A stretch of 44,536 nt of DNA from Chthonomonadales bacterium (GTDB lineage: Bacteria > Armatimonadota > Chthonomonadetes > Chthonomonadales > CAJBBX01), in the NCBI GenBank assembly GCA_020849275.1, contig JADLGO010000045.1, positions 1 to 44,536 of the forward strand, in the 5' to 3' direction. Position numbers and translations under genes: made by a program. The notes beneath the pieces were generated by a model. It was not told where the DNA came from. It saw nothing but the letters and a program-made list of their open reading frames with translations, and did no database searches. Position 1 is the first letter of the stretch. Each line of letters begins with the position of its first letter. Positions 4,740 through 44,475 of this stretch are shown here, in pieces.

Positions 4740-5596
4740 CGCTCTCCATCGTGATCGTGAACTGGAACACGCGCGAGTACCTCCTCGGCGCGCTCGCGTC
4801 CATCTACGCGCACCCGCCCCCCTTCCCGTTCGAGGTGGTGGTGGTGGACAACGCCTCGCAGGATGGCAGCGCGGAGGCTGTCCGCGAGCGCTACCCGCGG
4901 GCGCGCCTGCTGGCGAACGCCGACAACGCGGGCTATGCGCGGGGCAACAACCAGGGGTTGGCGGAGGCGCGTGGACGGTACGTGCTGCTGCTGAACCCGG
5001 ATGTGGTGGTGCCCGCTGACGCGCTGGAGAGGGCCGTGCGATGCGCCGATAGCGCGCCGGACGTGGGGGCCGTCGCGGTGCGGCTCGCGAGCCCCGACGG
5101 CACCGTTCAGCCGTCCGTGCGCGGCTTCCCCACTCCGGAGGCCCTGCTGTGGGAGGTAACTGGACTCAGCCGGCTATTCCCGCAGTGCCGCCGCCTTGGC
5201 GCCTACCGCATGGCGTGGTTCGGGTACGATCGAGAGGCGAACGTGGACCAGCCGATGGGCACCTTCCTGTTGATTACCCGGGAGGCGCTTTCGGACGTTG
5301 GTCCTCTGGACGAGCGGTTCCCGATCTTCTTCAACGAGGTGGACTGGTGCTACCGCGCGAGGCGCCGGGGATGGCGAATCCGGTTCACGCCGCAGGCCAC
5401 GGTGACCCACTTCGGCGGCGGGAGCACGCGGCAGGTGAGCGCGGAGATGGCCTGGGAGTCGCGCCGTGGCCTGCTCGGCTTTTATCGCAAGCATTACGCG
5501 TCGCCCGTCTTCGCCCCCGTATACTGGATCGCGGCCGCCTCGTCATGGCTGCACGCCTGGTGGACGGCTCGAGGGCGGACCGTGCGCGCCGCATGA
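4736..5596 (+). CDS. Family 2 glycosyltransferase, rhamnosyltransferase-like
   Basis: This is a 286-aa GT-A fold enzyme. It opens with LSIVIVNWNT, followed by VVVVDNASQDGS (nucleotide-sugar binding), ANADNAGYARGNNQG, the DxD-equivalent LNPDVVV near residue 84, and the acceptor-side motif NEVDWCYRARRRGW near residue 200. This motif order is that of WbbL/RfbF-type GT2 enzymes that transfer rhamnose or related sugars to a lipid-linked glycan on the cytoplasmic face. The ATG overlaps the previous stop by 4 bp (ATGA), and I see no separate ribosome-binding site, consistent with translational coupling. A short hydrophobic C-terminal segment (PVYWIAAASSWLHAWW) may touch the membrane. Confidence 0.9.
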   Translation: MTLSIVIVNWNTREYLLGALASIYAHPPPFPFEVVVVDNASQDGSAEAVRERYPRARLLANADNAGYARGNNQGLAEARGRYVLLLNPDVVVPADALERAVRCADSAPDVGAVAVRLASPDGTVQPSVRGFPTPEALLWEVTGLSRLFPQCRRLGAYRMAWFGYDREANVDQPMGTFLLITREALSDVGPLDERFPIFFNEVDWCYRARRRGWRIRFTPQATVTHFGGGSTRQVSAEMAWESRRGLLGFYRKHYASPVFAPVYWIAAASSWLHAWWTARGRTVRAA

Positions 5597-5624
5597 GCGC
5601 GGCGAGCGGACAGGAGCGCTGAGC

Positions 5625-6527
5625 TTGACGGAAGCCCGCGGCGACGTGGACCTTACGATCATCATCATCAACTGGAACACGCGAGACGAGTTACGGGACA
5701 GCCTGGCCTCGATCCGCGCGCGACCGCACCGGCACACCGTGGAAGTGGTGGTCTCCGACAACGCCTCCTCGGACGGCAGTCGCGCGATGCTCGCCGAGGA
5801 GTTCGCCGACGTTCGGCTGATCGTCAGTCCAAGCAACGCGGGCTTCGGCGCCGGCAACAACCGCGCCATCCCGGCGGCGCGCGGGCGCTTCGTTATGTTC
5901 CTGAACTCCGACACCATCGTCACGCCGGGCGCCCTGGATTCCCTCGTCGAGTTCGCCGACGCGCACCCGGACATCGGCATCGTGGGGCCCAGGCTCCTGA
6001 ACAGGGACGGCAGCCTTCAGTACTCGTGCCGGCACTTCCCGAACCTGGGCACGGGCTTCTTCCGCAACACGCCACTGGGTCGCCTCTTCCCGCGCAACCG
6101 CTTCAACCAGGACTACCTGCTCACCGACTGGGACCACGCCACCGAGCGCGACGTGGACTGGGTTTCGGGCGCGGCGCTGATGATCCGCCGGGAGGCGCTC
6201 GATCGGCTCGGGGGCTTCGACGAGGGCTTCTTCATGTACTGCGAGGACGTTGACCTCTGCTACCGCGCGCACGAGGCCGGCTGGCGGGTGGTGTACCAGC
6301 CGAACGCGGTGATCTACCATATCATCGGGAGGAGCACCGACAAGGTGCCGACGCGCATGACCTACCACTTCCACAAGAGCATGTACCGCTTCTATCAGAA
6401 GCACTATCGGGAGCGCACGCCGATCCTCGTCCGGCCGCTCATCGTTCCTGGCCTCGTCGCGCGCGCAACCGGACAGATCGTGCGCTATCGGTGGCGCCAC
6501 CTGCGGCGGCGTCTCCGAGGAGCCTGA
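5625..6527 (+). CDS. Family 2 glycosyltransferase, rhamnosyltransferase-like paralogue
   Basis: This 300-aa protein is built like its upstream neighbour: LTIIIINWNTRDEL, VVSDNASSDGS, PSNAGFGAGNNR, FLNSDTIV as the DxD-equivalent, and YCEDVDLCYRAHEAGW. The two are probably an old tandem duplication working on successive sugars of one repeat unit. The TTG at 5625 was chosen because AGGAG sits at 5612-5616 with 8-base spacing. The alternative GTG at 5646 has no such site. The C-terminus is basic and amphipathic (RYRWRHLRRRLRGA), consistent with peripheral membrane association. It lies 28 bp after the first transferase and 3 bp before the polymerase/ligase gene, so one operon is likely. Confidence 0.88.
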   Translation: MTEARGDVDLTIIIINWNTRDELRDSLASIRARPHRHTVEVVVSDNASSDGSRAMLAEEFADVRLIVSPSNAGFGAGNNRAIPAARGRFVMFLNSDTIVTPGALDSLVEFADAHPDIGIVGPRLLNRDGSLQYSCRHFPNLGTGFFRNTPLGRLFPRNRFNQDYLLTDWDHATERDVDWVSGAALMIRREALDRLGGFDEGFFMYCEDVDLCYRAHEAGWRVVYQPNAVIYHIIGRSTDKVPTRMTYHFHKSMYRFYQKHYRERTPILVRPLIVPGLVARATGQIVRYRWRHLRRRLRGA

Positions 6528-6530
6528 GCC

Positions 6531-8759: not shown

Positions 8760-8763
8760 CGGC

Positions 8764-9954
8764 CTACGCCGCCGGAGGCGTGAGCGTGGCGGCCTCGTAG
8801 GGGCTGCGCGCCGGCGGGGCCGCGCGTCGATGGGTCTTGAGCCAGTACCGCCGTACGATGACGCGCACCAGCGCCGCGACCGGGGCCGCGAAAAACATGC
8901 CGAGCAGCCCACCAAACTCCTGGCCGATCAGCAGCACGACGATGATCACCACCGGGTGCAGGCTCATTCGCTCGCCGATCACGTAGGGCATCAGAAACTT
9001 GCTCTCGGCGAAGTGCAGGAAGGTGAAGAACGCCAACACGCCGAGCGCCACGCCCATCCCCTTGGTCACGAGCACGAGCAGCACGATCGGAATGCCTCCG
9101 ATGATCGGCCCGATCACCGGGATGGCACGCGTGAGCCCGGCTAGAATACCGAGAGTGAGAGGGTATTTGACGTTCAACGCGGCGAGCCCGAGCCCCACCA
9201 CGATTCCAGCGACCGCACACAGGATGGCCTGGCCGACGACGAAGCTGTACATGATCAGGTTGAACTCCCTGACCATGCGCAGCACCTCGCGGCGGCTGCG
9301 CGCGGGCAGCGCGCCCACGAACTCGTGCTTGAGCCGCTTGCTGTCCAACGCGAAGTAGAAGGCCAGGACGGGCAGGAGCAGGATCTCGATGATGTAATGC
9401 GCGGCGTCGCTGACGTGGCGCACAACAGCCGTGAACCACTGGCCCGCCTGGCGCTGGAAGTCGATGGCCTTGCTGCGCTCGGCCTGCTCCGCGAGCCACG
9501 CGCGCCACTCGGGCTTCACATGCTCGGAGTACCACGCCTGCACGTCCTGGCCGTAGCTGTCCAGGTCGGCGCGATACTCGTCCCAGTTCTCAGCGGCGTT
9601 GCGGACTTCGGTGATGAACGGGTTCACCATGAATCGCCCCGCGTACCATGCCGCCACACCGAGGAGAACGAGGACGTAGAACGTCGCCAACGCGCGGCGC
9701 ACGTGGTTCGGAAGCCGCGCGGCGCCGCCATGCATCGCCACGAACCAGGTCTGCTGCATCAGCCACTCGGCCATCGGGCGCATCACGTAGGCGATGGTGG
9801 CGGCGATGAAGAGGGAGATGATCACCACCCGCAGCCGGCCGATCACGTAGACGGCCAGCACGATGGCCCCGCCGTAGAGCGCGTTGCGCCAGAGCGCCTT
9901 CACCACGGCCGTCACCCAGACGTCGGCCGCCTGAGGCGCTCCCCTCGGGGTCAT
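8764..9954 (-). CDS. AI-2E family transporter (PF01594-type membrane protein)
   Basis: This 396-aa protein has the family layout: two or three N-terminal membrane helices (YGGAIVLAVYVIGRLRVVIISLFIAATIAYVM), a soluble helical region at about 100-190, and C-terminal helices including the conserved glycine/proline stretch LTRAIPVIGPIIGGIPIVLL. The family includes TqsA-like exporters, but most members have no known substrate and the name should not be read as quorum sensing. The start codon overlaps the stop of the upstream UDP-GlcNAc epimerase gene (ATGA, 9951-9954), so it is the last gene of the minus-strand operon. In Firmicutes, atpI and the ATP synthase genes often follow wecB at this position. 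Here this protein does. Confidence 0.85.
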   Translation of the reverse strand: MTPRGAPQAADVWVTAVVKALWRNALYGGAIVLAVYVIGRLRVVIISLFIAATIAYVMRPMAEWLMQQTWFVAMHGGAARLPNHVRRALATFYVLVLLGVAAWYAGRFMVNPFITEVRNAAENWDEYRADLDSYGQDVQAWYSEHVKPEWRAWLAEQAERSKAIDFQRQAGQWFTAVVRHVSDAAHYIIEILLLPVLAFYFALDSKRLKHEFVGALPARSRREVLRMVREFNLIMYSFVVGQAILCAVAGIVVGLGLAALNVKYPLTLGILAGLTRAIPVIGPIIGGIPIVLLVLVTKGMGVALGVLAFFTFLHFAESKFLMPYVIGERMSLHPVVIIVVLLIGQEFGGLLGMFFAAPVAALVRVIVRRYWLKTHRRAAPPARSPYEAATLTPPAA

Positions 9955-11078
9955 CGGGGCATCTCCTCCTCGAGCGCCGTGCGGATCGCCGCGGCGGCAT
10001 GGCCATCGCCGTAAGGGTTGGAGGCGCGCGCCATGCGCGCGCGCGCGCCGGCGTCCGTCAGCAGCAGCCGCGCCTCGGCGACGACGCGCTCGCGCCGGGT
10101 GCCGACCAGGCGCGCGACGCCCGCGGCGACGCCCTCGGGTCGCTCCGTCGTCTCGCGGAGCACGAGCACCGGGACGCCCAGACTGGGCGCTTCCTCCTGG
10201 ATCCCGCCGGAATCGGACAGGATCAGCGCGGCCCGCTGCATCAGCTTGACGAACGGCGCGTAGTCCGGCGGCTCCACCAGGCGCACGCGCGGTCGCCCCT
10301 CCAGGATGGGCCGAACCTGCTCTCGCACGAGGGGGTTGCGGTGCATGGCGAAGACGAACTCGCAGTCGTCGAGCTCCGCGGCCAGGCAGGCTACCGCCTC
10401 GCAGATCCGCCCCAGGGGCTCCCCCAGGTTCTCGCGACGATGCGCCGTCACCAGCACGAGCCGCGCCGGCCCCTCCACGACCTGGCGGAGCACGGGGTCT
10501 TCGAATGCGTGCGGTTGCGCCGCGACCGAGAGCAGCGCATCGATGCCCGTGTTCCCCGTCACGCGGATGTGCTCGGCGGGGACGCCCTCGCGCAGCAGAT
10601 TTCCGCGCGCGCGCTCGGTGGGAGCGAAATGGAAGCGCGCGATGGCTCCCGCCAGGCGGCGGTTCATCTCCTCCGGGAACGGGTCGTAGATGTCTTGCGT
10701 GCGCAGACCGGCCTCCACATGCCCGAATGGCACCTTGCGGTAGAACGCGGCCAGCGCGGCGACGAAGGTGGTCGTCGTGTCGCCCTGGGCAAGCACCACG
10801 GCCGGCTCCTCGCGTGCCACGACGGCTTCCAGACCCTCCAGCGCGCGCGTGGTGATCTGCGCAAGCGTCTGGCCGTGGCGCATCAGGTCCAGGTCCACGT
10901 CGGGCACGATGCCGAAGACGCGCAGGACCTGATCGAGCTGCTCGCGATGCTGGCCGGTGACGGCCACGCGGACCTCAAACGAGCCCGAATGGGCCTGCAG
11001 TTCCCGGACGACGGGCGCCATCTTGATGGCGTCGGGGCGCGTGCCGAACACGCAGAGCGCGCGGATGCGGTGGCTCAA
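9951..11078 (-). CDS. wecB: UDP-N-acetylglucosamine 2-epimerase (non-hydrolysing)
   Basis: The 375-aa length and motifs match WecB/MnaA: VFGTRPDAIKMAPVV at the N-terminus, VTGQHREQ, QGDTTTTFVAALAAF, FGHVEAGLRT, TAHRRENLG, SDSGGIQEEAPSLG and RETTERPEG. It interconverts UDP-GlcNAc and UDP-ManNAc in the cytosol for surface polysaccharide or linkage-unit synthesis. I place the start at TTG 11078, which overlaps the stop of the upstream transferase as TTGA and begins directly before the conserved HRIRALCVFGTRP. The ATG at 11123 would add 15 residues overlapping the neighbour's coding end. It is coupled on both sides, with a TTGA overlap upstream and an ATGA overlap downstream. Confidence 0.93.
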   Translation of the reverse strand: MSHRIRALCVFGTRPDAIKMAPVVRELQAHSGSFEVRVAVTGQHREQLDQVLRVFGIVPDVDLDLMRHGQTLAQITTRALEGLEAVVAREEPAVVLAQGDTTTTFVAALAAFYRKVPFGHVEAGLRTQDIYDPFPEEMNRRLAGAIARFHFAPTERARGNLLREGVPAEHIRVTGNTGIDALLSVAAQPHAFEDPVLRQVVEGPARLVLVTAHRRENLGEPLGRICEAVACLAAELDDCEFVFAMHRNPLVREQVRPILEGRPRVRLVEPPDYAPFVKLMQRAALILSDSGGIQEEAPSLGVPVLVLRETTERPEGVAAGVARLVGTRRERVVAEARLLLTDAGARARMARASNPYGDGHAAAAIRTALEEEMPR

Positions 11079-12088
11079 GGGGCCTGCCTCGAGAGCTCGA
11101 AGACAAAGAGAGCGGCCAGGCACAGCGCGGCAGTGCAGCCGTAGATGACCCAGACGGCCTGGCGGTGCGAGAGGCCGCGGTCCAGCAGCCGATGGTGTAG
11201 GTGGCGGCGATCGGCGGCGGTCAGCGGGGCGCGCTGGGCCAGCCGCTTAAGCAACACGATGCCGTAGTCGACGATGGGCACTCCCAGCACCAGCACCGGG
11301 ATGAAGACGGAGGCCGCCGCCGCGAGCTTGTAGGTGCCGAGGATGGAGAGGGCTGCGAGCAGGAAGCCCAGGAACTGGGCGCCCACCGTGCTCATGAAGA
11401 TGCGCGCGGGATTGTAGTTGTGGCGCAGGAAGCCGATGCACCCGCCGGCCACCGCTGCCGCCACCAGCGCGAGCGAGGGGCCCTCCGGCTGGCGCGATGC
11501 GGCGGCGACGAGCGCCAGCGTCGCGGCCGAGATCGCGCAGACCCCCGCCGCCAGGCCGTCCAGGCCGTCAATCGCATCAACGGTCTTCGTCACGAGGAAG
11601 ACCCAGAAGAGCGTGGCGGCGACGCTGACGATGGGCGAGAGCGCGATCCACTGTGCCGGGTTGTATGCTCCCGGCGGCGCGGCGACGAGCGGATTGGTGA
11701 CCCCTTCGATGCGCACGCCGAACGCCACCAGGATGGCGCCGGCCGCCAGGATGCCGAGGGCCTGCCAGGCCGCCCTAAGGTCGCGCAGGTCATCAACGAG
11801 GCCGACGAGCGCGATGAAGGTAGCGGCGACCATCACACCGGCGAGGTGCCAGTTCCAGCCGCTATCGCCGCCGGTGCGCCAATGGCGGTAGGTGAGCGCC
11901 AGGCAAGAGGCGGCGACGACGCCGGCGTAGATGGCGATGCCACCCCAGCGCGGCACCGGCTTGTCGTGCACGTCACGGGCTCGCGGCACCGCGACGGCGC
12001 CGGCGCGCAGCGCCAGGCGCAGCACCCACGGCGTCGCCGCCCACGTGATCGAGAGCGCAACCACGAAGGCGACGGCCATCCCGATCAC
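11075..12088 (-). CDS. WecA/TagO/MraY-like polyprenyl-phosphate sugar-1-phosphate transferase with altered active-site motifs
   Basis: This 337-aa polytopic membrane protein has the glycosyltransferase-4 layout: DKPVPRWGG near residue 42, DDLRDL with D99-D100, VDAIDGLDGLAAG (D171, D174, D177), NYNPARIF near 224, and LHHRLLDRGLSHRQAV near 297. Enzymes of this family move a sugar-1-phosphate from a UDP-sugar to undecaprenyl phosphate, starting cell-surface glycans. Two normally conserved positions differ: the F-M-G-D-x-G-S motif reads FMSTVGA (S233-T234), and the usual Asn of V-N-L-x-D-G is Asp171. It may be a variant subfamily or an altered enzyme. GTG 12088 overlaps the upstream stop as GTGA, with GGGGAGAAG about 8 bases upstream. 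Confidence 0.87.
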   Translation of the reverse strand: MIGMAVAFVVALSITWAATPWVLRLALRAGAVAVPRARDVHDKPVPRWGGIAIYAGVVAASCLALTYRHWRTGGDSGWNWHLAGVMVAATFIALVGLVDDLRDLRAAWQALGILAAGAILVAFGVRIEGVTNPLVAAPPGAYNPAQWIALSPIVSVAATLFWVFLVTKTVDAIDGLDGLAAGVCAISAATLALVAAASRQPEGPSLALVAAAVAGGCIGFLRHNYNPARIFMSTVGAQFLGFLLAALSILGTYKLAAAASVFIPVLVLGVPIVDYGIVLLKRLAQRAPLTAADRRHLHHRLLDRGLSHRQAVWVIYGCTAALCLAALFVFELSRQAP

Positions 12089-22380: not shown

Positions 22381-24927
22381 ATGCAGTGGATCGCGTTCGC
22401 CGCCCTTGCGGCCCTCCCCGTAGCGGTCTGCGCAAGCGCCGCCGGCCAGCCGCCCGCTCCCGCCCGCGCGCTCCGCTTCGCCGCCGCCAGCAAGGGCGAC
22501 GCGCTGGCATGGCAGCGGGCCTGCCGCCGCAAGCTCTTCGAGACGATGATGGGCGGCTCGCAGCCTCGCCGGGTCCCGCTCGCTCCCCAGACCCTGCGCC
22601 GCGTCGAGGTGCCGGCAGGCGGTTACGCGCTTGAGGAGGTGACCATCCAGACGCTCCCAGACCGGCGCGCGCACCTCTGGCTGGCTGTGCCGCTCTCGCC
22701 GCGCCGCCGCGGCCCCGCCGTCCTCGCGCTCCATGGTCACGGCGGAACGGGCGAGCAGATCGTGCGCGGCCAGGGCCTCTACTGGTATGGCCGCGCCCTC
22801 GCCGAGATGGGCTACGTGGTGGCCGCGCCGGACATCGGCTCCCACGACCTTCAGCACCCCGGGTGGTCACTGATGGGCGAGCGCGTGTGGGATGCCCTGC
22901 GCGTCGTGGACTACCTGGCGTCGCGCCCCGAGGTCGACGCCGGGCGCATGGCCGTAGGCGGGCTCTCGCTCGGCGGCGAGACGACGATGTACGTGGCCGC
23001 GCTCGACGAGCGGCTGAAGGCGGCCGACAGCTCGGGATGGCTCACGACCGTGGCGAACATGCGTAACGGCCACTGCACCTGCTACGACTTCCCCGGTCTG
23101 GCGCCCAACTTCGACTTCTCCGACATCTTCGGGTGCATCGCGCCGCGGCCGCTGATATGTGAGATCGGGGAGCGTGAGCGCGCGCCGGGCGGCTTCCCGG
23201 TCGGTGTTGCCCGCGAAGCATGGAGCGGCGTTCAGGCCGCATACCGCGCCTTCGGCGCCGAGGATCGCGCTTCGCTCGCGATCCACCCGGGCGGCCATGT
23301 GTTCGTCGGCACGGCCTTCTGGCGGCCGCTGCGCGCGGCCATCGGCACGCCGACGCCGTGGGCGCCCGAGGCCGGCTCGCCAACCGCGGAGGCGCTGCGC
23401 CGTGGCGAGATCGCCCGCCGTGCCTTCTGCCGAGCCCGCGCCCTCCTCGACGGCTGGTGGGCCTACCGTGACCCCGCGACCGACATGACGCCCCGCACGC
23501 TCGACCAGCCGGTGTGGGCGCCGAACGACAACGCGGCCGACATGTTCCCCTTCCTCTTCATGACCGCGCGCTACCTGCGGCCCGAGCGCGAGCCCGACCT
23601 GCTACGCCTCCTGGAGACGGAGCGCCGGATCACCAACCGCGTGGGCGCGCTGCCGGACTGGCTGGACCTCAACACGAAGCGGTGGGTGCACGCCGAGCCC
23701 GACACGCGACGCCTCGTCTTCAACGCCGCCGAGTACTGCAAGGACGGCCTGCTGCCCATGACGGAGTCGCTCGGCCAGGGGCCGTGGACGGTGCGCATGG
23801 TCGAGATGCTCGACGACATCTTCGAGGCCGCTCCCGTGCAGAGCGAGTTCGGCTCGCTGCCCGCCGACGACACCGAGGTGAACGGCGACCTGTTGCAGGC
23901 CCTGACTCGAATGCACGCGATGACGCGCGAACCACGCTACCTGAAGTGGGCCGAGCGCATCGCCGACGCCTATTTCCTAGAGGTGCTGCCCCGCTCCGGC
24001 GGCCTACCCGCCCGGCGCTGGGACTTCGCTCGCCACGCTCCCATCGACACCGCGCTGAGCCTGAACGACCACGGCAACGAAATCGTCGGCGGTCTCTCCG
24101 AGGCCTACGTGGCGGCGACCACCTTCGACCCGCCGGCCGCGGCGCGCTACCGCGCCCCGTTCATCGCCATGCTGCGCCGCCTGCTCGAGGTCGCCCGTAA
24201 CCCCGATGGCCTCTGGGTGGGTGCGGTACGCACGACCACCGGCGAGGTGACCGTCAGGGCAACGCCGGATACCTGGGGCTACGCCCTCACGGCGGTCGCG
24301 ACGGGCGCGATGGTCACCCGCGACCGCACGATCGAGGACGCCGTGCTGCGGGCGCTGCGGGCCATCGACAAGCCGGCATACCTGGAGTGGAACGGGGCGG
24401 ACTCCTATGCCGACAGCATCGAGGGCGGCCTGCTCCTGCTCAACCGCTACCCGGAGCCGGCGGTTGCCCGCTGGCTCGACGCCATCCTGCCCGTCTTCCT
24501 CGGCAAGCAGCAGGACTCCGGCGTCGTGGAGGGCTGGTACGGCGACGGCAACTACGCCCGAACCGCGCTGATGGCGGCGTTCTACTTCACGCGCGGAGCG
24601 ACATGCCATCCGTGGCGCGACGACCTGCGCTTCGGCGCGGTCACGGAGGGCAAAGGCGTCCGGCTTGCGCTGCGGGCGGATCGCGCATGGGAGGGCCGGG
24701 TGCGTTTTGACACGCCCCGCCACCGTCTGCACATGCGCCTGCCGCTGAACTACCCGAGGCTCAACGAGTTCCCCGAGTGGTTCACCGCCGACCCGGACGC
24801 GACGTACCGCGTGCGCGTCGACGGCGGCGCCTGGCGCACCGTCGGCGGCGCGGAGCTTGCGCGCGGATTGGCGCTCACGGCATCGCCCGGCGCGACATGC
24901 GAGGTCGAGGTGCAGCCGGCCGCGTGA
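22381..24927 (+). CDS. Secreted alpha/beta-hydrolase fused to an alpha/alpha-barrel carbohydrate domain, 848 aa
   Basis: After a Sec signal (FAALAALPVAVCASAAGQ), residues ~75-325 form an alpha/beta-hydrolase like acetyl-xylan esterases: LALHGHGGTGEQ for the oxyanion side, nucleophile Ser196 in GGLSLGGE, and His306 in IHPGGHVFVG. Residues ~350-740 look like an alpha/alpha toroid of the kind found in many glycoside hydrolases and lyases (repeated aromatic-rich helices such as DNAADMFPFLFMTARYL and DTEVNGDLLQALTRMHA). The last ~100 residues are a beta-rich domain. A plausible job is removing ester groups and then processing the same glycan, which is inference. Substrate and toroid family are unrecognised. 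The TGA overlaps the next start (GTGA). Confidence 0.82.
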   Translation: MQWIAFAALAALPVAVCASAAGQPPAPARALRFAAASKGDALAWQRACRRKLFETMMGGSQPRRVPLAPQTLRRVEVPAGGYALEEVTIQTLPDRRAHLWLAVPLSPRRRGPAVLALHGHGGTGEQIVRGQGLYWYGRALAEMGYVVAAPDIGSHDLQHPGWSLMGERVWDALRVVDYLASRPEVDAGRMAVGGLSLGGETTMYVAALDERLKAADSSGWLTTVANMRNGHCTCYDFPGLAPNFDFSDIFGCIAPRPLICEIGERERAPGGFPVGVAREAWSGVQAAYRAFGAEDRASLAIHPGGHVFVGTAFWRPLRAAIGTPTPWAPEAGSPTAEALRRGEIARRAFCRARALLDGWWAYRDPATDMTPRTLDQPVWAPNDNAADMFPFLFMTARYLRPEREPDLLRLLETERRITNRVGALPDWLDLNTKRWVHAEPDTRRLVFNAAEYCKDGLLPMTESLGQGPWTVRMVEMLDDIFEAAPVQSEFGSLPADDTEVNGDLLQALTRMHAMTREPRYLKWAERIADAYFLEVLPRSGGLPARRWDFARHAPIDTALSLNDHGNEIVGGLSEAYVAATTFDPPAAARYRAPFIAMLRRLLEVARNPDGLWVGAVRTTTGEVTVRATPDTWGYALTAVATGAMVTRDRTIEDAVLRALRAIDKPAYLEWNGADSYADSIEGGLLLLNRYPEPAVARWLDAILPVFLGKQQDSGVVEGWYGDGNYARTALMAAFYFTRGATCHPWRDDLRFGAVTEGKGVRLALRADRAWEGRVRFDTPRHRLHMRLPLNYPRLNEFPEWFTADPDATYRVRVDGGAWRTVGGAELARGLALTASPGATCEVEVQPAA

Positions 24928-35040: not shown

Positions 35041-36849
35041 ATGCGATCCGTAACCACGGCGGGCGCGGCGGCGCTCGCACTGGCGCTGGCGGTGGCCGCG
35101 GCCGCGCCTGCCGCGGCCCTGGCGCCGGAGAGCCGCAAGAAGCTCATCGAGTACGGGTGGGATGTGCCCTACCCCGACGACGTGCGGCGCAACATACGCC
35201 TGATGGAGCGTAAGCCGTTCGACGGTATCGTGATCCGGCTCAAGCCCTCCAGCCAAGTCTTCCTCCACAAGCGCCACGACGCGGCGAAGTTCGCGCCCGA
35301 CCTGGAGGACTTAAGGCGCACCGCATTCGGCAAGTTCACCGACAACCTGATCCTCGTCTGGGCGACGGGCGACGAGGGATGGGACTGGTTCAGCGACGCG
35401 GACTGGTCGGCGGCCCAGCACAACGCGCGCCTCTTCGCCCGCGCCGCCCGCGCCGGCGGCTGCCGCGGCCTTTGCTTCGACCCCGAGCCCTACGGCTCCA
35501 ACGTGTGGAAGTACGAGGCGCAGCCGCGGGCCGGCAAGCGCTCGTTCGACGAGTGCCGGGCGCAGGTGCGCAAGCGCGGCGCGCAGTTCATGCGCGCGGT
35601 GCAGCGCGAGTTGCGGGACCCCCTCGTGCTCACCTTCTTCCACAACAGTCTGTTCGGCGGCATCCTGGACATCTCGGACCCCGAGAGCCGCCTGAAGCGA
35701 CTCTCCGCCGAAGGCTACGCCCTGCTGCCCGCCTTCCTCGACGGCATGCTCGACGCGGCCTCACCCGGCGCGCGCATCGTGGACGGCAACGAGATCGCAT
35801 ACTACTACACCGCGAGTGAACCGTTCTTTCGGGCCTATCACACCATGCGTCAGCGTTCCCTGGCCCTGGTGGACCCGCGCAACCACGCGCGCTACCGCAG
35901 CCAAGTGCAGGCCGGCCAGGCGATCTACATGGACCAGTTGCTGGCGACCCGGCCGCCCGAGGGCGGCTACATCAGCTACTTCATGACACCGGAGCAGCGC
36001 GCCCGCTTTCTGGAGCACAATGCCTATTACGCCCTCTACACCGCCGACGAGTACGTGTGGTGCTACAGCGAGCGTATGAGCTGGTGGAAGAACGAGTTGC
36101 CTCCCGGCGCCGAAGAGGCGATCCGCGCCGCGCGCGGCAAGGTGGAGCGTGGGGAGCCGCTGGGCTACAGCATCGACGCCATCGTGGGCGAGGCCCAGCG
36201 ACGCATGCGCGAGAAGGCTCAGGCCGACCTGACCCATCGCACCGCGCGCGTGCCGCGCCTGCCGACGGGCGTGCCGGCGCCCGCCATCGACGGCCTGCTG
36301 GACGACCCGACATGGCGCGCGGTCGCCCCGCTGGAGCCTCTGCTGCCCACGCGCGCTTCAGGCGCGGCCGCCGCCGACGCGGCTACCACCGTGCGCGTCA
36401 CCTGGGACGACCGCTGCCTCTACCTGGGCGCTCGGTGCGATGAGCCGCTGGCCGACCGCATCCGGACCTTCGGGCGGGAGCGAGACGATGCGCTGTGGGA
36501 GGGCGACACCCTCGAGCTGTTTCTCTGCCCGGGCGAAGCCGCGGGCCCATTCTGGCAGTTCGCGACCAACCCGGCCGGCGTGACCTTCGATCAGCGCGTC
36601 GATGGTGACGCCTACGACGTGGGGTTCAGCCCCGGTTGGCTCTGTCGCGCCGGACGCGACGCGGCCGGTTGGACCGCTGAGATAGCGATCCCCTGGAGCG
36701 CCGTGGGCGGCACGCCGCGCGTCGGCGAGCGGCGCCGCGCCAACGTCGGCCGGGAGCGCAAGCCGCGCGAGGAGCTGAGCACCTGGTCACAGGTGCTCTC
36801 CATGTTCCTTGAGCCCACGCAGTTCGGCGTATGGGAGTTCCGGAACTGA
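35041..36849 (+). CDS. Secreted protein with a CBM9/DOMON-like C-terminal domain, 602 aa
   Basis: The start at 35041 has GGAGGAGG about 10 bases upstream and opens a classical signal peptide (MRSVTTAGAAALALALAVA, cleavage near AAA-L). Residues ~35-400 have a barrel-like beta/alpha look (LIEYGWDVPYPDDVRRNIRLM, IVIRLKPSSQVFL, GLCFDPEPYG, LTFFHNSLFGG) and may be a glycosidase family I do not recognise. The segment CFDPEPYG contains acidic residues suited to catalysis. From ~430 the sequence matches the CBM9-like pattern: AIDGLLDDPTWRAVAPL, TTVRVTWDDRCLYLGARCDEP, ALWEGDTLELFLCPG, TAEIAIPWSAVGG. Such domains bind sugars, often at chain ends. It overlaps the following btpA frame by 19 bases. Confidence 0.8.
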   Translation: MRSVTTAGAAALALALAVAAAAPAAALAPESRKKLIEYGWDVPYPDDVRRNIRLMERKPFDGIVIRLKPSSQVFLHKRHDAAKFAPDLEDLRRTAFGKFTDNLILVWATGDEGWDWFSDADWSAAQHNARLFARAARAGGCRGLCFDPEPYGSNVWKYEAQPRAGKRSFDECRAQVRKRGAQFMRAVQRELRDPLVLTFFHNSLFGGILDISDPESRLKRLSAEGYALLPAFLDGMLDAASPGARIVDGNEIAYYYTASEPFFRAYHTMRQRSLALVDPRNHARYRSQVQAGQAIYMDQLLATRPPEGGYISYFMTPEQRARFLEHNAYYALYTADEYVWCYSERMSWWKNELPPGAEEAIRAARGKVERGEPLGYSIDAIVGEAQRRMREKAQADLTHRTARVPRLPTGVPAPAIDGLLDDPTWRAVAPLEPLLPTRASGAAAADAATTVRVTWDDRCLYLGARCDEPLADRIRTFGRERDDALWEGDTLELFLCPGEAAGPFWQFATNPAGVTFDQRVDGDAYDVGFSPGWLCRAGRDAAGWTAEIAIPWSAVGGTPRVGERRRANVGRERKPREELSTWSQVLSMFLEPTQFGVWEFRN

Positions 36850-37725
36850 GCGCCGCGGCCGCCCCGCCGGGCGCGGCCGCGAGCGCGGAGGCGTTCTTCG
36901 CCGGAACGCCGATCGTGGGCATGGTGCACCTGGGTCCGCTGCCCGGCAGCGCGCGCGACGCGGGGCGCCTCGACGAGGTGATCGCCCGCGCCGAGGCGGA
37001 CGCGGCGGCGCTCCAGGCCGGCGGCGTCGATGCCGTCATGGTTGAGAACTATTCCGACGCCCCCTTCCATCGCGCCGGCGTGCCACCGCACACGGTGGCC
37101 GCGATCACGGCTGCCGTGAGCGCCGTCCGGCGCACCGTGAACCTCCCCGTGGGCGTCAACGTGCTGCGCAACGACGTGTGCGCGGCCATCGCGATCGCGC
37201 ACGTCTGCGGCTGCCGCTTCGTCCGCTGCAATGTGTACGTCGGTGCCGCGGTCACTGACCCGGGGGATCATCGAGGGCGCGGCGCGCGAGGCGCAGGAGT
37301 ACCGTCGGCGCCTGCGCGCCGACGTCTGGATCTGGGCGGATGTCGGCGTCAAGCACGCCTCGTCGCTCGGCAACGTATCGGTGGAGGCTGAGGCGCGCGA
37401 CGCCGTGGAGCGCGGCCTGGCCGATGCTCTGATCGTCACCGGACCGGCGACCGGAGCCGACACGTCGCCGGAGCGCCTACGGGCTGTGCGCGCCGCTGGC
37501 GGCGGATGCCCGGTGCTGGTGGGGAGCGGGCTTCGCGAGGAGACCGTGGCGGCGCTCCTGGCGAGCGCCGATGGGGCGATCGTGGGGACCAGCCTGAAGC
37601 GAGGCGGGCGCATCGCCGGGCCCATCGACGTCGATCGCGTGGAGGCCCTGATGGCGCGCGTGCGTTCGGCCCGGGCCGCGCGCGCGAGCGCACCCGCGTC
37701 ACAAACCGACCCGAGCGGGGTATGA
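36831..37725 (+). pseudogene. btpA: BtpA-family TIM-barrel protein, interrupted by a one-base frameshift
   Basis: The N-terminal half (to codon ~145) has BtpA motifs TPIVGMVHLGPLPGS, GGVDAVMVENYSDAPF and VGVNVLRND. It stops making sense after the run VGAAVTDPG. The rest continues in the next frame as GIIEGAAREAQEYRR, WADVGVKHASSLG and GAIVGTSLKRGG. The break is at the five-G run 37262-37266; four Gs would restore one reading frame of the usual length. A sequencing or assembly error is therefore possible, as is a real mutation. BtpA-like proteins are TIM-barrel proteins, first studied for photosystem I accumulation in cyanobacteria; elsewhere the role is unknown. The start at 36831 overlaps the previous gene, and a later start is possible. 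Confidence 0.8.
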
Positions 37726-39151: not shown

Positions 39152-40219
39152 CTAGCTGCCGAGCTCGTCGGCGTACCCGTAAGAGCGGGTATGCGCATCC
39201 TCCAGGTAGCGCGCCAGCAACTGGACCGCCCCCTCGATGTCGGACACGGACGCCGTCTCATTCACCGTGTGCACGTAGCGGCAAGGCACCGAGAGGGTGA
39301 AGCTGGCCACGCCGCCGCGTGAGCGCTGGATGCCGCCGGCATCCGTGCCACCGCGCGCCAACAGCTCGAGCTGGTAGGGGATCTGGTGCCTCTCCGCGAG
39401 GTCGCGAAAGTGGCGCACGAGCTTCGGGTGGCAGAGCAGCGACGAGTCCATCACCTTGATAGCGACGCCCGCGCCAAGCCTGCTCACCTGGTCCTGGTCG
39501 GCCGCGCCGGGGAAGTCGTTGGCCAGGGTCACGTCCACGGCCAGGCCGACCTCGGGCTCCAGGGCGTAGGCCGCCGTGGTGGCGCCGCGCAGTCCGACCT
39601 CCTCCTGCGTGGTGGCCACCGCCACGATGTCGCAGGCGTGGCTGCCAACGGCGCGCAGCGCCTCGATGGTGACGAACAGGGCGATGCGGTTGTCGAGCGC
39701 CAGGCTCATCACGTTGCCGCCGACCCGTTCGGCCGTGCGCGCCATCGTCACCATGTCGCCGATCTCGACGCGCTTCCTCACCTCGTCGCCGGCCAGGCCG
39801 AGGTCGACGAACATCTCCTCGATCCTGGGCGCCTTGCCGGCCTCCTCGGGCGTCAGCATGTGAACCGGCTTGGCCGCCGGCATCAGCGCCCCGAGCAGCG
39901 TCTCGCCGGCGAAGCCATGCACGTGGACACGTTGGGCCACCATGTTGCGCGGGTCCCAACCGCCGATCGGCTGAAGGCGCAGAAAGCCCTTGTCGTCGAT
40001 GTGCTTCACCAGGAAGCCGATCTGGTCCATGTGTGCCGCGACCATCACGCGCGGCCCACCTCCGGCGCCGCGCTTGGTCGCGACCACGTTGCCCATCACG
40101 TCGACGCGCACCTCGGAGACCAGCGGCCGCAGCTCCTCCACCACGACGGCCCGGATCCGCTCCTCGCGGCCCGAAACGCCCGGGGTCTCACAGAGCCGCT
40201 TCAACAGGTCGAAGTTCAC
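39152..40219 (-). CDS. M42-family metallo-aminopeptidase / endoglucanase-type peptidase
   Basis: This 355-aa protein carries the dinuclear metal ligands of M42: H63 in AAHMDQIGF, D176 in ALDNR, E206-E207 in TTQEEVGLRG, D229 in AVDVTLAND, and H317 in RYVHTVNE. The order and the 355-aa length match FrvX/YsdC-type tetrahedral aminopeptidases, which trim peptides in the cytosol. Some members were first named endoglucanases, and no cellulase activity should be assumed. GTG 40219 lies 8 bases after GGAGG. It sits between a sulfotransferase gene (59 bp upstream) and gpsA. Confidence 0.93.
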   Translation of the reverse strand: MNFDLLKRLCETPGVSGREERIRAVVVEELRPLVSEVRVDVMGNVVATKRGAGGGPRVMVAAHMDQIGFLVKHIDDKGFLRLQPIGGWDPRNMVAQRVHVHGFAGETLLGALMPAAKPVHMLTPEEAGKAPRIEEMFVDLGLAGDEVRKRVEIGDMVTMARTAERVGGNVMSLALDNRIALFVTIEALRAVGSHACDIVAVATTQEEVGLRGATTAAYALEPEVGLAVDVTLANDFPGAADQDQVSRLGAGVAIKVMDSSLLCHPKLVRHFRDLAERHQIPYQLELLARGGTDAGGIQRSRGGVASFTLSVPCRYVHTVNETASVSDIEGAVQLLARYLEDAHTRSYGYADELGS

Positions 40220-40278: not shown

Positions 40279-41184
40279 CTACTGTACCCTCCATCCCTCC
40301 ACGCGGTCGCCGAAGCGCCGGTGGAGCGCCTCGATGTCCTGGGCGTACATCTCCTCCAGCACCCGCCGGACGCCCCGCGGCATCGGCGGTGACGGGACAC
40401 CTTCCATGAAACGCTCCCGCAACGGGAAGGTCTCCATCGGCAGGTCTGCGTTGACGCCGAGGTGGCGCAGCACGTCGGTCAGGAGACGCTCGGGGCAGCG
40501 CTTGATCTCGTCAAACACACCCACGTAGAGCGAGTCGGGGCCATAGACAGACGTCCAGTTGTCGATGTCGCGCAGGTACATGGTGTAGTGCCGGTTATTG
40601 CGCAGGCGAACGCGGCGCACGAACTCCCACTCACGCACGTCCTCGAACGAGCGGTGCGTACGGAACATGAGCTCCTGCTTGGCGTGGGACCACGCGCGAT
40701 CGATGGGGTTTCGCATCATGTAGACGAGCTTGAGGTCGGGCATGATCTTCTTGAGAAACCGAATGCGCCGCGTACGGATGCCCCCGTAATCCACCGTGAT
40801 GTCGCCGATGCGCTTGCCGCGCCCCGGCTCAAGGTATGTGGAGTAGTGCTTCAGGCTGCGATGGAAGCTCCACGACAGGTAGTGGACCTCCTTGACCTCC
40901 GGCATGAAGATGTCGGGATGCCGGCTAAGCTGGCCCCAGAGCCAGGTAGTGCCGGACTTCATCGCGCCGAGCCCCAGGAAGTCGGGCAGCGCCAGGCCGG
41001 CGGTCGAGAGCGTCCCGGTAGCGTAGAGGTGCTTCTCGACGGCGCTGAAAGGCGTGTAGAGGACTCGCTCCAGCAGCGGAGGCGGGTAGTGATGCTCCCG
41101 CGCGAGCTGGCGGAGGCACCAGCGAAAGGACTCGTACGCCACGGAGCGTCGCAGTCGGCGGGCGAAGGGGTTCTCGGCGGCCAC
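40279..41184 (-). CDS. PAPS-dependent sulfotransferase
   Basis: The 301-aa protein has both cofactor motifs: the 5'-phosphosulfate loop LGAMKSGTTWLWG (K76-S77-G78-T79-T80) and the 3'-phosphate motif VYMMRNPIDRAWSHAK (R158 and S166). It should transfer sulfate from PAPS to a hydroxyl of a sugar or other acceptor. GTG 41184 follows AAGGAGAG by 5 bases and is preferred to GTG 41226, which has no site. It lies 51 bp after the next paralogue and probably shares its transcript with the PAP phosphatase. The acceptor is unknown; a surface glycan is the leading idea. Confidence 0.9.
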   Translation of the reverse strand: MAAENPFARRLRRSVAYESFRWCLRQLAREHHYPPPLLERVLYTPFSAVEKHLYATGTLSTAGLALPDFLGLGAMKSGTTWLWGQLSRHPDIFMPEVKEVHYLSWSFHRSLKHYSTYLEPGRGKRIGDITVDYGGIRTRRIRFLKKIMPDLKLVYMMRNPIDRAWSHAKQELMFRTHRSFEDVREWEFVRRVRLRNNRHYTMYLRDIDNWTSVYGPDSLYVGVFDEIKRCPERLLTDVLRHLGVNADLPMETFPLRERFMEGVPSPPMPRGVRRVLEEMYAQDIEALHRRFGDRVEGWRVQ

Positions 41185-41235
41185 GGCTCTCTCCTTGCCG
41201 GCCCCGCGGCCGGCTACGGACGCCACCCTGCGATG

Positions 41236-42183
41236 CTAGACGCTGGGACGCCGGACTCGCCACGCGGCAACGGCGTCGCCAAAGCGAGCGTAGAGCGCCT
41301 CGATGGGGTCCGCGTACATCTCCTCAAGCAGGCATCGGTACCCGGCAGGGATCGGGGCGGCGAAGTGGTCGGACCATCGGCCGCGATCCTGCGGGTCGGG
41401 CTCGAGGTCCGCGCGCGCGCCAGGGTCCCGCGCGCCCGACACCGGCCCGAGCACCGCCAGATCCTCGGAGGCGCCGATGTGGCGCAGGATCTCGCGCAGC
41501 ATCGGCTCCGGCCGGCGGGCGATGTCGTCGAAGAAGCCGATGTAGAGCCGGTCCGCCGAAAAGACGCGCAGCCACGTGTCGATGCCGCGCAGATACTCGG
41601 CGCCCTCGCGTGACGCGCGTGAGCGGAAGTGACGCACGAACTCGGCCGGGCGCACGTCCGCGAAGCGGCGCCCGGGGCGGAACATGAGCGACTGGCGCGC
41701 GTGGGTCCAGGCGCGATCAACCGGGTTACGCAGCAGCACAACGAGCCGCGAGTCCGGCGCCAGCAGGCGCACCCAGGCGATGCGCGCCTCCGGCAGCGCC
41801 AGGTACTCGGTGGTGATCTCGCCCCGGATCCGGTCGGCGCCCGGAGCCAACCGTCGCGCGTAGTGCCGGACGCTTCGTTGGAAGTTCCAGGAGAAGTAGT
41901 GGAGCTCCTTCGTGGGGGGGATGTAGACCTCCGGGTGGCGGTCGAGGTGCTCGAAGAGCCACGCCGTGCCGCTGTGCATCGCTCCCAGGCCGAGGTAGCA
42001 GGGCATGGACAGTCCGCGCGCCGTCAGCCGCCCGCTGGCGTAGAGGCGCTTCTCCACGGCGCTGACCGGGGCCAGCGCGAGCCGCTGGAGAAGGGGCGGT
42101 GGGTAGAAGGGGTCTGGAACCGCCTGCCGGTAGAGGAAGCGCAGGGCCTCGTAGGCGGCGGTGCGCTTCAGGTAGGCGCGCAT
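41236..42183 (-). CDS. Sulfotransferase paralogue with altered PAPS-binding residues
   Basis: This 315-aa protein is similar along its whole length to its neighbour (AVSAVEKRLYASGRLTARGL, LHYFSWNFQRSVRHYARRL, ADPIEALYARFGD). At the 5'-phosphosulfate loop it reads GAMHSGTAW, so the PAPS lysine is H70 and the second Thr is A74. In the 3'-phosphate motif Thr160 replaces Ser (LLRNPVDRAWTHARQ). A second, diverged function or weak activity is possible. ATG 42183 is used. GTG 42189 directly after the upstream stop (TGAGTG) is an alternative. Neither has a strong ribosome-binding site, so coupling to the PAP phosphatase gene is likely. Confidence 0.85.
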   Translation of the reverse strand: MRAYLKRTAAYEALRFLYRQAVPDPFYPPPLLQRLALAPVSAVEKRLYASGRLTARGLSMPCYLGLGAMHSGTAWLFEHLDRHPEVYIPPTKELHYFSWNFQRSVRHYARRLAPGADRIRGEITTEYLALPEARIAWVRLLAPDSRLVVLLRNPVDRAWTHARQSLMFRPGRRFADVRPAEFVRHFRSRASREGAEYLRGIDTWLRVFSADRLYIGFFDDIARRPEPMLREILRHIGASEDLAVLGPVSGARDPGARADLEPDPQDRGRWSDHFAAPIPAGYRCLLEEMYADPIEALYARFGDAVAAWRVRRPSV

Positions 42184-42189
42184 GGCCAC

Positions 42190-43182
42190 TCAGTCGGCCG
42201 CAAGCACGCGCGACACGGCCCGCCCCACCGGCTCACGCAGCGCCCCGTTCGTCGCCACCACGCCCCGGTTGGCGCGGAGCGTGCGGCCCTGCGCGAAGTC
42301 CAGCGGACGCCCATACGCGTCGCTCACGTGACCGCCCGCTTCCGCCACCAGCAGGGCGCCGGCGGCGTGGTCCCACGCCTTCTCTTCGTAATCCGCCCGG
42401 GTGGGCAGGCGCAGGTAGATGTCGGCGTCTCCACGCGCCACGGCCGCGTACTTTGCCTGGCTGTCCATCCGCAGCGGGGCGGCGCGCACGCCGAGGACCT
42501 CGGCTATGCGAGCGGCCTCGCCCTGCGAGGAGTGGGCCGCCTCCACGGACTCGCACAGCACGGCCTCGGTCGGGTTGCCCTGCCGCGACACGCTCAGTGC
42601 CTCCTCCGGCCCTCCGCCGGGGCCGAGGGCGCGTGCGCCCTGACCCCGTGCGGCATAGAACAGCCCGCCCGGGGGCGCCTCGGACGGCCCGGGCGCTGCC
42701 GGAAGGCGCGGGCACCCGAGCACGCCGAGCACAACCCGGCCTTCCTCGATAAGGGCGATCGCGACGGCGTACTGCTCGCCGCGTAGAAAGCCCTTCGTAC
42801 CGTCCACGGGGTCGATCACCCAGAAGCGCCCTGCCGGCTCCGCGCGACCGCGGCCAAGCATGAGCGCGTCCAGCAGATCGGCCTCGCTGAGAGAGGGCTC
42901 GACCATGCGAGCGTACTCAAGCACGCGCCTCCGCGTGGCCGAGGTCCCGGCGCCGCGCAGGTCGTCGGCGTCCTCCTCGGCCACGATCGCCGTTCCGGGG
43001 AAGGCGGCGAGCAACCGGCGGCATATGAGCGCCTGCGAGCAGAAGTCGGCCACCGTCACCGGCGAGCGGTCGCCCTTCCAGAGGGTCTCGGCGGAGACCA
43101 GTCCCTCGCGCACAGCCTCGCATACGCGACACGCCTCGCGAGCGGCGTCGAGAGCCGCACCGCGCTCCTCCTGCCACGCCAT
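42190..43182 (-). CDS. 3'(2'),5'-bisphosphate nucleotidase (PAP phosphatase), HAL2/CysQ-like
   Basis: The 330-aa inositol-monophosphatase-fold enzyme has the metal-site motifs IVAEEDADD (about 66-74) and WVIDPVDGTKGFLRGEQYAV (D124, D127, G-T), plus the C-terminal EEKAWDHAAGALLVAEAGG. The DGTKGFLRG form is typical of HAL2/Met22/SAL1 enzymes that remove the 3'-phosphate of PAP, rather than of inositol phosphatases. PAP is the product of sulfotransferases, and this gene is 6 bp upstream of one, a strong functional fit. ATG 43182 lies 6 bases after AAGGAG; the ATG at 43188 is inside that spacing. Confidence 0.9.
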   Translation of the reverse strand: MAWQEERGAALDAAREACRVCEAVREGLVSAETLWKGDRSPVTVADFCSQALICRRLLAAFPGTAIVAEEDADDLRGAGTSATRRRVLEYARMVEPSLSEADLLDALMLGRGRAEPAGRFWVIDPVDGTKGFLRGEQYAVAIALIEEGRVVLGVLGCPRLPAAPGPSEAPPGGLFYAARGQGARALGPGGGPEEALSVSRQGNPTEAVLCESVEAAHSSQGEAARIAEVLGVRAAPLRMDSQAKYAAVARGDADIYLRLPTRADYEEKAWDHAAGALLVAEAGGHVSDAYGRPLDFAQGRTLRANRGVVATNGALREPVGRAVSRVLAAD

Positions 43183-43229: not shown

Positions 43230-43266
43230 CGCCGCGCCCCGCTCGCGTAACGAGCGGGGCGCGGCG
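43230..43266. terminator. Perfect 16-bp stem-loop between the small membrane gene and the PAP phosphatase gene
   Basis: CGCCGCGCCCCGCTCG (43230-43245) is exactly complementary to CGAGCGGGGCGCGGCG (43251-43266) with a 5-base loop CGTAA. There is no T-run on either strand. A second self-complementary 16-mer GCCGCGCCGGCGCGGC lies just beside it (43207-43222). Either a U-less terminator or a regulatory RNA structure that separates the two genes. Confidence 0.5.
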
Positions 43267-43579: not shown

Positions 43580-44272
43580 CTACTGGCGCACGTGGGCCGA
43601 GCTCACCAGCAGCTCGCTGAGGTTGGCGAGCCCCAGTGGCACGGCCGACACTTTGCGCTTGATGCGCGCCAGGGCGTTGTCCACCGACTTCGTTTTGCAG
43701 CGCAACTCGGTGGCGATCTCCCGGTACGATTTGCCCACCTGGTAGCCGGCAAGCACGCGCCACTCGAAATCGGAGAGCATCTGCTGCAGCATCTCGTGCA
43801 GCCGCCGCGTGTCCTCGCTCTGAAGCACGAGGCCCTCCGGGTCCTGCATCTCCGTCGATGGAATGATGTCCGACAGGTTCCACTCGGGGCCGCCGTCGTC
43901 GGCGGGAGACTCCAGGGAGAGCGAGGTGTTCAGAGGCATCTGCTTCTGGCGGGTTGCCGTCTTGATCGCGGTGATGATGTGGCGCTGGATGCAGACCTTG
44001 GCGAAGGCGGGGAACGAGATGGCCCGCTCACAACGGAAATCGACGATCGCCTGCCAGAGGCCGATCATGCCGACCTGCAGGAGGTCTTCCTTCTCCGCTC
44101 CGACCAGGAAGTACGACTTCACCTTCGTGCGCACGAGGTTACGGTACTTGTACAGAAGGAACTCAGCCGCCAGCTCTTCTCCCTCCTGCGCTCGCGACAC
44201 GACCTCGCGATCGGCCATCTCGAGGTAGCGGGCATGGGTGGGCTTCAGATGGTGCTGCACTTCGCTATCCAC
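43580..44272 (-). CDS. sigH: Sigma-70 factor of the sporulation sigma-H (Spo0H) type
   Basis: This 230-aa protein closely follows the sigma-H pattern: EFLLYKYRNLVRTKVKSYFL (2.1), GAEKEDLLQVGMIGLWQAI (2.2), ISFPAFAKVCIQRHIITAIK (2.3-2.4), TATRQKQMPLNTSLSL, and region 4 LSDFEWRVLAGYQVGKSYREI with SVDNALARIKRK. It should guide RNA polymerase to a special promoter set, in Bacillus at the start of stationary phase and sporulation. Its role here is unknown, since no sporulation gene is in view. GTG 44272 was chosen because GGGAGA precedes it by 5 bases; the ATG at 44377 overlaps the -10 box of its promoter and is rejected. It heads the minus-strand set that ends at gpsA. Confidence 0.9.
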   Translation of the reverse strand: MDSEVQHHLKPTHARYLEMADREVVSRAQEGEELAAEFLLYKYRNLVRTKVKSYFLVGAEKEDLLQVGMIGLWQAIVDFRCERAISFPAFAKVCIQRHIITAIKTATRQKQMPLNTSLSLESPADDGGPEWNLSDIIPSTEMQDPEGLVLQSEDTRRLHEMLQQMLSDFEWRVLAGYQVGKSYREIATELRCKTKSVDNALARIKRKVSAVPLGLANLSELLVSSAHVRQ

Positions 44273-44345
44273 TCTGGTCTCCCAGTAGTCAGGATTTTGA
44301 GTTTCAGGGCAACAGCCGGGACGGTACGTTGGGCCGCGGGGGCCC

Positions 44346-44475
44346 GAGGCAACGCGGTGGTGTCTTCTGTGCCTCATTATACATTACAGGATCCGGCGCG
44401 CGCAACCCCGCGCGTTGCCTCACCAAATACCTGACCGAAGCGGTTTCGTTGCCTCACGTAAGAACCTAACCGAAG
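44346..44475. repeat. Clustered GTTGCCTC elements and a 34-bp-period imperfect direct repeat around the sigH promoter
   Basis: The ~28-bp stretch CGTTGCCTCAC...ACCTGACCGAAG at 44413-44440 recurs at 44447-44475 with small changes. An inverted GAGGCAACGC is at 44346-44355, between the promoter and the gene, and a partial GAGGCGAC at 44512-44519. This could be a regulator-binding array. Confidence 0.45.
44376..44405 (-). promoter_or_regulatory. Promoter for the sigma-H-like gene, TTGCGC-18-TATAAT
   Basis: On the minus strand TATAAT (44381-44376) is 18 bases after TTGCGC (44405-44400), a weak -35. A start near 44369 gives a 97-nt leader. The repeated GTTGCCTC/GAGGCAAC elements flank it on both sides. 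Confidence 0.5.

What the first reader, a model, noticed from the sequence alone, without database searches (positions are those of the whole stretch)
40279..43182. Compact sulfation module with its own PAP removal
Two sulfotransferases lie directly behind a HAL2-type PAP phosphatase. PAP inhibits sulfotransferases, so the gene order makes biochemical sense. No PAPS synthesis gene is in view. The acceptor may be a surface glycan or a secreted compound.
Basis: partly seen in the sequence, partly recalled or inferred. Interest (0 to 1): 0.6.

Follow-up and report, generated by a model that had tools for sequence, protein, structure and literature searches.

The report
Sulfotransferase pair with PAP phosphatase
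A bacterium carries, in one short gene run, an enzyme that clears the inhibitory by-product of sulfation and two enzymes that probably attach sulfate to a cell-made molecule; each part is of a known type, and the arrangement is rare but not a new kind of system.

Summary
On the minus strand lie HAL2 (42190-43182, 330 aa) and two tandem sulfotransferases, ST-A (41236-42189) and ST-B (40279-41184), which are 49% identical. HAL2 passes NCBIfam's cut-off for the HAL2 type of PAP phosphatase. ST-A and ST-B have the sulfotransferase fold and resemble glycan sulfotransferases. The missing PAPS synthesis genes are elsewhere in the same genome: sat on contig C18 and cysC on C17. No member of the PAPS/APS-reductase/CysD family (PF01507) was found, so PAPS made here probably serves sulfation only. 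The trio was found in 1 of 291 genomes of the phylum. Relatives more often place a sulfotransferase beside APS kinase. ST-A has His where ST-B has the PAPS-loop Lys. His occurs at this position in a whole related family, so ST-A is not shown to be dead. Against a tight link: one relative has HAL2 without APS kinase or sulfotransferase hits, and among 14 genomes with APS kinase but no PF01507 only 4 have a PF13469 sulfotransferase. Acceptor unknown. It is a new member of a known kind.

The parts
42190..43182 (-). HAL2-type 3'(2'),5'-bisphosphate nucleotidase (PAP phosphatase), 330 aa
   Evidence: TIGR01330 325.7 bits, cut-off 267.05; PF00459; closest solved chains SAL1 phosphatase 8f9y, nucleotidase 4hxv and yeast HAL2; start chosen by AAGGAG at 43194-43189
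41236..42189 (-). ST-A, PAPS-dependent-type sulfotransferase with GAMHSGTAW in place of GAMKSGTTW; start GTG 42189 or ATG 42183
   Evidence: PF13469 40.8 bits and PF00685 24.4 bits, both over cut-off; alignment with ST-B, 49% identity; predicted fold matches 3rnl and heparan sulfotransferases
40279..41184 (-). ST-B, sulfotransferase with intact PAPS loop GAMKSGTTW, catalytic-type Glu in KEVHYLSW and RNPIDRAWS, 301 aa from GTG 41184
   Evidence: PF13469 50.2 bits and PF00685 42.8 bits; predicted fold matches 3rnl and heparan sulfotransferases; AAGGAG at 41196-41191
43230..43266 (.). perfect 16-bp hairpin with 5-nt loop between the upstream small ORF and HAL2; possible transcription-unit boundary, no T run
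   Evidence: not flagged by the terminator scan
39152..40219 (-). M42 aminopeptidase-like gene, 59 bp downstream, same strand; possibly co-transcribed, no obvious link to sulfation
   Evidence: PF05343 302.5 bits

Best explanation
The three genes form a small co-directional unit for cytoplasmic sulfation. Sat and CysC, encoded elsewhere in the genome, make PAPS. ST-B, and probably ST-A, move the sulfuryl group from PAPS to a hydroxyl or amino group of an intracellular acceptor, most likely a glycan or glycolipid precursor. HAL2 hydrolyses the released PAP to AMP and phosphate, which relieves product inhibition. Gene identities and order are shown. Co-transcription, enzyme activities and the acceptor are inferred.
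For: HAL2 passes the equivalog cut-off and scores far above CysQ and inositol-phosphatase models. Its metal-ligand motifs (VADF, AEED, DPVDGTKGFLRGEQ, WDHAAG) align with yeast HAL2 (residue roles recalled). Both STs match Pfam sulfotransferase families and the folds of 3rnl, NDST1 and 3-OST. The catalytic-type Glu and the His two residues on (Glu184/His186 of 3-OST-3 in PMC8341778) align as KEVHY and KELHY. HAL2 and ST-A abut (TGA-GTG), and ST-B follows with its own ribosome site. The genome has sat (NF003166 537 bits, TIGR00339 424 bits) and cysC (NF002059 267 bits, TIGR00455 227 bits), all over their cut-offs. It has no PF01507 member (control found in 14 of 14). In 101 relatives APS kinase and PF13469 go together: 38 of 42 ST genomes have APS kinase (not corrected for kinship). 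A HAL2-type gene also sits inside an exopolysaccharide region of an Isosphaera pallida plasmid.
Against: The trio is in one genome only, so conservation cannot be used. The relative G003 has HAL2 with no APS kinase or PF13469 hit. There HAL2 would serve another PAP source, such as 4'-phosphopantetheinyl transfer. Of 14 relatives with APS kinase and no PF01507, only 4 have a PF13469 ST, so the rule 'no reductase means sulfation' is not supported across the phylum. PF00685-only STs were not counted there. No acceptor gene adjoins the trio. The neighbours are an M42 peptidase, GpsA and a SigH-like sigma factor.
Confidence: 0.72

Rival explanations
1. HAL2 is a housekeeping PAP phosphatase that clears PAP from carrier-protein phosphopantetheinylation (and any other source). 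Its position beside two sulfotransferases is incidental or only mildly useful.
For: G003, same family, has HAL2 but no APS kinase or PF13469 hit. No ST match was found near the G003 gene, and it is followed by nusA/miaB/mutS/mutL-like genes (names from my reading of the gene calls).
Against: HAL2 is in only 2 of 291 genomes of the phylum, so most relatives do without it. Chance adjacency to one of 3 STs is roughly 0.001 (my estimate). HAL2 stop and ST-A start abut.
Confidence: 0.2
2. ST-A is a catalytically weak or dead paralogue kept as a partner or scaffold of ST-B, because its PAPS-loop Lys is His and the next Thr is Ala.
For: Lys to His and Thr to Ala in the PAPS loop. Lys is present in the other 11 of 12 aligned homologues (10 of these were found partly by a pattern allowing K or H).
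Against: His stands at this position in a separate ST family of the phylum (RGH[SG]GTR, mostly beside APS kinase). 15 of the 45 STs assigned, from 65 read, have His, ST-A included. ST-A keeps the Glu, the 3' site Arg and an intact frame. Its model is as good as that of ST-B.
Confidence: 0.2
3. The phosphatase acts mainly on inositol or other sugar phosphates and the neighbours are unrelated.
For: Arabidopsis FRY1/SAL1, the same family, has both activities in vitro (PMC3197580, passages).
Against: Best solved relative is a SAL1 phosphatase, followed by a 3'(2'),5'-bisphosphate nucleotidase and yeast HAL2. In PMC3197580 yeast MET22 is said to have virtually no IP3 activity. Scores for inositol-phosphatase models are far below cut-off. 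A second, non-HAL2 IMPase-family gene is on C9.
Confidence: 0.06

Closest known systems
Capsule sulfation region of Cobetia marina KMM 1449 (PMC11766843; abstract and passages read)
   Same: PAP phosphatase gene (cysQ) held with sulfation genes; the authors assign PAP removal after sulfotransferase action
   Different: There cysN/C, cysD, cysQ and a sulfate permease form one operon in a capsule cluster; here HAL2, not CysQ, adjoins two STs and PAPS synthesis is on other contigs
Mycobacterium tuberculosis sulfation branch: CysNC, CysQ (Rv2131c), Stf sulfotransferases (PMC3141025, passages read)
   Same: PAPS synthesis, sulfotransferases and a PAP(S) phosphatase thought to promote sulfation
   Different: CysQ type, and the organism also keeps the reductive branch (APS reductase)
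HAL2/SAL1 nucleotidases (TIGR01330; PDB 8f9y, 4hxv, 1k9y)
   Same: Full-length match and conserved catalytic motifs
   Different: Best-known members are eukaryotic (recalled); here it is bacterial and next to STs
Heparan sulfate 3-O- and N-sulfotransferases; 3rnl of Alicyclobacillus
   Same: Fold, PAPS loop, catalytic-type Glu
   Different: 15-27% identity; the 3-OST Arg after the PAPS loop (Arg166 of 3-OST-3) is Thr or Ala here; acceptor unknown
HAL2-type nucleotidase on Isosphaera pallida plasmid pISOP01
   Same: 43% identical, lies among glycosyltransferase, nucleotide-sugar dehydrogenase and exosortase genes
   Different: No gene annotated as sulfotransferase in the 49,999 of 56,340 bases viewed (the gene table is incomplete by the tool's statement)

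Membership tests
HAL2-type PAP phosphatase (TIGR01330) | score above the curated equivalog cut-off | tested here: met
   325.7 against 267.05 bits; CysQ model 111.4 against 228.8
HAL2-type PAP phosphatase (TIGR01330) | metal-binding Asp/Glu motifs and HAL2-type GTKGFLRGEQ | tested here: met
   aligned with yeast HAL2 and SAL1; residue roles recalled
HAL2-type PAP phosphatase (TIGR01330) | hydrolysis of PAP, Li+/Na+ inhibition | not testable with these tools
   needs purified enzyme
PAPS-dependent sulfotransferase (PF13469/PF00685) | Pfam cut-off and sulfotransferase fold | tested here: met
   both proteins, both families; fold matches
PAPS-dependent sulfotransferase (PF13469/PF00685) | basic residue (Lys/Arg) in the 5'-phosphosulfate loop | tested here: inconclusive
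   ST-B Lys: met. ST-A His: differs, but His is natural in 15 of 45 assigned phylum STs (ST-A included)
PAPS-dependent sulfotransferase (PF13469/PF00685) | transfer of sulfate from PAPS | not testable with these tools
   needs assay
Heparan sulfate 3-O-sulfotransferase | residues important for activity listed in PMC8341778 (Lys162, Arg166, Glu184, His186, Asp189, Lys215 and others) | tested here: not met
   Glu and His kept in both; Lys only in ST-B; Arg166 site Thr/Ala; Asp189 site Ser (site mapping is my reading of the alignments). Not filed as a member
Complete sulfation pathway in the genome | ATP sulfurylase and APS kinase present | tested here: met
   sat C18, cysC C17
Complete sulfation pathway in the genome | the trio conserved as a unit in relatives | tested here: not met
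   trio in 1 of 291 genomes

The most novel reading that the evidence does not exclude
This lineage has dropped the reductive sulfur branch and keeps sulfate activation solely for decorating a molecule with sulfate. A eukaryote-like HAL2 is translationally coupled to a heterodimeric sulfotransferase in which the His-variant ST-A tunes or directs ST-B.
Probability: 0.12. Interest if true: 0.5.

Novelty: new member of a known kind. Interest (0 to 1): 0.3.

Why it matters
If right, this genome, 99.9% complete by the tool's figure, is a clean case in which PAPS is made but never reduced, so any PAP formed from PAPS must come from sulfation. That would make a simple test of how far PAP removal limits bacterial sulfation. 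The comparison with relatives also shows a second, more common layout, a His-loop sulfotransferase beside APS kinase, which is worth annotating.

Tried and rejected
ST-A as an obvious pseudoenzyme: lowered after finding His at the same loop position in a whole ST family. 'APS kinase without PF01507 implies sulfotransferase' as a phylum rule: not supported, 4 of 14. Recent transfer by composition: not seen. GC, GC3 and codon score of the three genes lie within about 1.7 sd of the window's genes. Trio in named genomes: the genome-contig scan gave 13 distant ST loci, none with a HAL2, CysC or Sat match in the DNA held. HAL2 in viral contigs: none. Promoter and terminator scans: nothing useful. 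tRNA: none.

From APS kinase I dropped 5 of 73 genomes with weak matches (G039, G060, G080, G089, G099). From PF01507 I dropped 4 of 70 (G043, G074, G091, G094). PF13469 was taken as listed (42, one of them under the family cut-off). In one search, 65 of 69 listed ST places were read, the other 4 being second pieces of the same gene. 20 of 65 could not be assigned by the pattern. The single 'T' is a mis-assignment, since that protein's loop has R.

Full report
Observation. The window is the whole of contig C45 of a 4.8 Mb genome in 73 contigs. On its minus strand three genes run HAL2, ST-A, ST-B without a gap of more than about 50 bases. I prefer GTG 41184 as the ST-B start, because AAGGAG stands 6 nt before it.

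HAL2. The protein scores 325.7 bits with TIGR01330 (cut-off 267.05), and 111.4 with the CysQ model (cut-off 228.8). The best solved relatives are a SAL1 phosphatase (8f9y, 263 bits), a 3'(2'),5'-bisphosphate nucleotidase (4hxv, 229 bits) and yeast HAL2 (187 bits). The motifs that hold the metals in yeast HAL2 (roles recalled) are all aligned. Arabidopsis FRY1/SAL1 also has inositol polyphosphatase activity in vitro, while yeast MET22 has virtually none on IP3 (PMC3197580, passages read). Sequence therefore supports PAP phosphatase but cannot exclude a second substrate.

Sulfotransferases. ST-A and ST-B are 49% identical over their length. Both pass PF13469 and PF00685. AlphaFold2 models with a 12-row alignment reach mean pLDDT 77.8 (ST-B) and 79.5 (ST-A). 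Foldseek ranks 3rnl, NDST1 and heparan 3-O-sulfotransferases first for both; cytosolic SULTs and tyrosylprotein sulfotransferases come later. The Glu-x-His of 3-OST (Glu184, His186 in PMC8341778, passages read) is kept in both. ST-B has GAMKSGTTW; ST-A has GAMHSGTAW. To see whether His is fatal I read 65 of the 69 sulfotransferase places listed. Of 45 that a pattern could assign, 27 have R, 15 H (ST-A included), 2 K and one is a mis-assignment. Most H cases are a family with RGH[SG]GTR. So His is a natural state, though in a different subfamily with an Arg nearby.

Supply and fate of PAPS. The genome has one APS kinase (C17) and one ATP sulfurylase (C18), both over curated cut-offs. PF01507, which holds PAPS reductase, APS reductase and CysD (recalled), has no match, while all 14 control genomes do. 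A third PF13469 sulfotransferase is on C7. The simplest reading is sulfate to APS to PAPS to sulfated product plus PAP, then PAP to AMP by HAL2. This is inference from gene content.

Relatives. In 291 genomes of the phylum, HAL2 at E <= 1e-25 is in 2 (own and G003). The ST-pair profile at E <= 1e-12 matches in 5, only the own genome having the close pair. In G003 the gene lies across two contig ends that overlap by 109 identical bases. No ST match lies in the fetched 9.0 and 3.8 kb around it, and that genome has no APS kinase or PF13469 hit. This counts against a strict link. Over 101 genomes (own and 100 relatives), strong APS kinase hits are in 68, PF01507 in 66 and PF13469 in 42. 38 of 42 ST genomes have APS kinase (Fisher p 2.8e-5, kinship ignored). 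Of 14 genomes with APS kinase and no PF01507, the own one included, 4 have PF13469. Nine genomes (G004, G005, G007, G008, G010, G045, G057, G097, G098) have an ST within 1 kb of APS kinase (positions). Linking the ST to donor synthesis is therefore the more usual layout, and linking it to PAP removal is the exception.

Elsewhere. A scan of 84,980 named species genomes with strict peptide patterns gave 13 distant ST loci and no HAL2 beside them. In 72,556 plasmids HAL2 has one match at E <= 1e-20, in Isosphaera pallida pISOP01, 43% identical, amid glycosyltransferase, nucleotide-sugar dehydrogenase and exosortase genes. Published precedents for PAP phosphatase held with sulfation are Cobetia marina (PMC11766843, abstract and passages) and M. 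tuberculosis (PMC3141025, passages). Paper searches listed nothing that, by title and start of abstract, describes a HAL2-ST-ST unit; most subscription journals are not in that library.

Acceptor. None of the adjoining genes names it. The window holds glycosyltransferases, a Wzy-type ligase/polymerase domain, WecB and a WecA/MraY-type transferase at 4.7-12.1 kb, about 28 kb away. With the glycan-ST fold this mildly favours a surface glycan. No signal or membrane segment was looked for by a program; by eye the STs have none.

Verdict. Real, sensible and probably functional, but built from known parts in a known logic. The organism is probably Armatimonadota by prepilin-like sequences seen in the fetched loci (recalled resemblance, not tested).

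Noticed in passing
L092, L093, L097, L098, L099, L102, L106 (unnamed relatives): A sulfotransferase family with RGH[SG]GTR in the PAPS loop lies within 1 kb of APS kinase genes in seven relatives; it looks like a recurrent donor-linked sulfation unit of this phylum.
   Followed up: partly
window 36831-37725 (+): A BtpA/SgcQ-family gene appears split over two frames (PF03437 positions 4-121 in one ORF, TIGR00259 119-254 in another): a frameshift or a sequencing error.
   Followed up: no
window 43230-43266: Perfect 16-bp inverted repeat with 5-nt loop just upstream of HAL2, without a T run; its arm occurs nowhere else in the window.
   Followed up: partly
window 43580-44377 (-): Sigma factor scoring above the NCBIfam cut-off for sporulation SigH (235.6 against 208), followed by a 69-codon one-helix-like ORF.
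   Followed up: no
G006, G009, G011 and others: Ten relatives have APS kinase but neither PF01507 nor PF13469; what uses their PAPS is unclear.
   Followed up: partly
L136/L137, Isosphaera pallida pISOP01 22418-23557: HAL2-type nucleotidase inside an exopolysaccharide and exosortase region on a plasmid.
   Followed up: partly
window 4736-12088: Two GT2 genes, a Wzy_C/TPR protein, WecB and a WecA/MraY-type transferase: a possible surface-glycan region.
   Followed up: no
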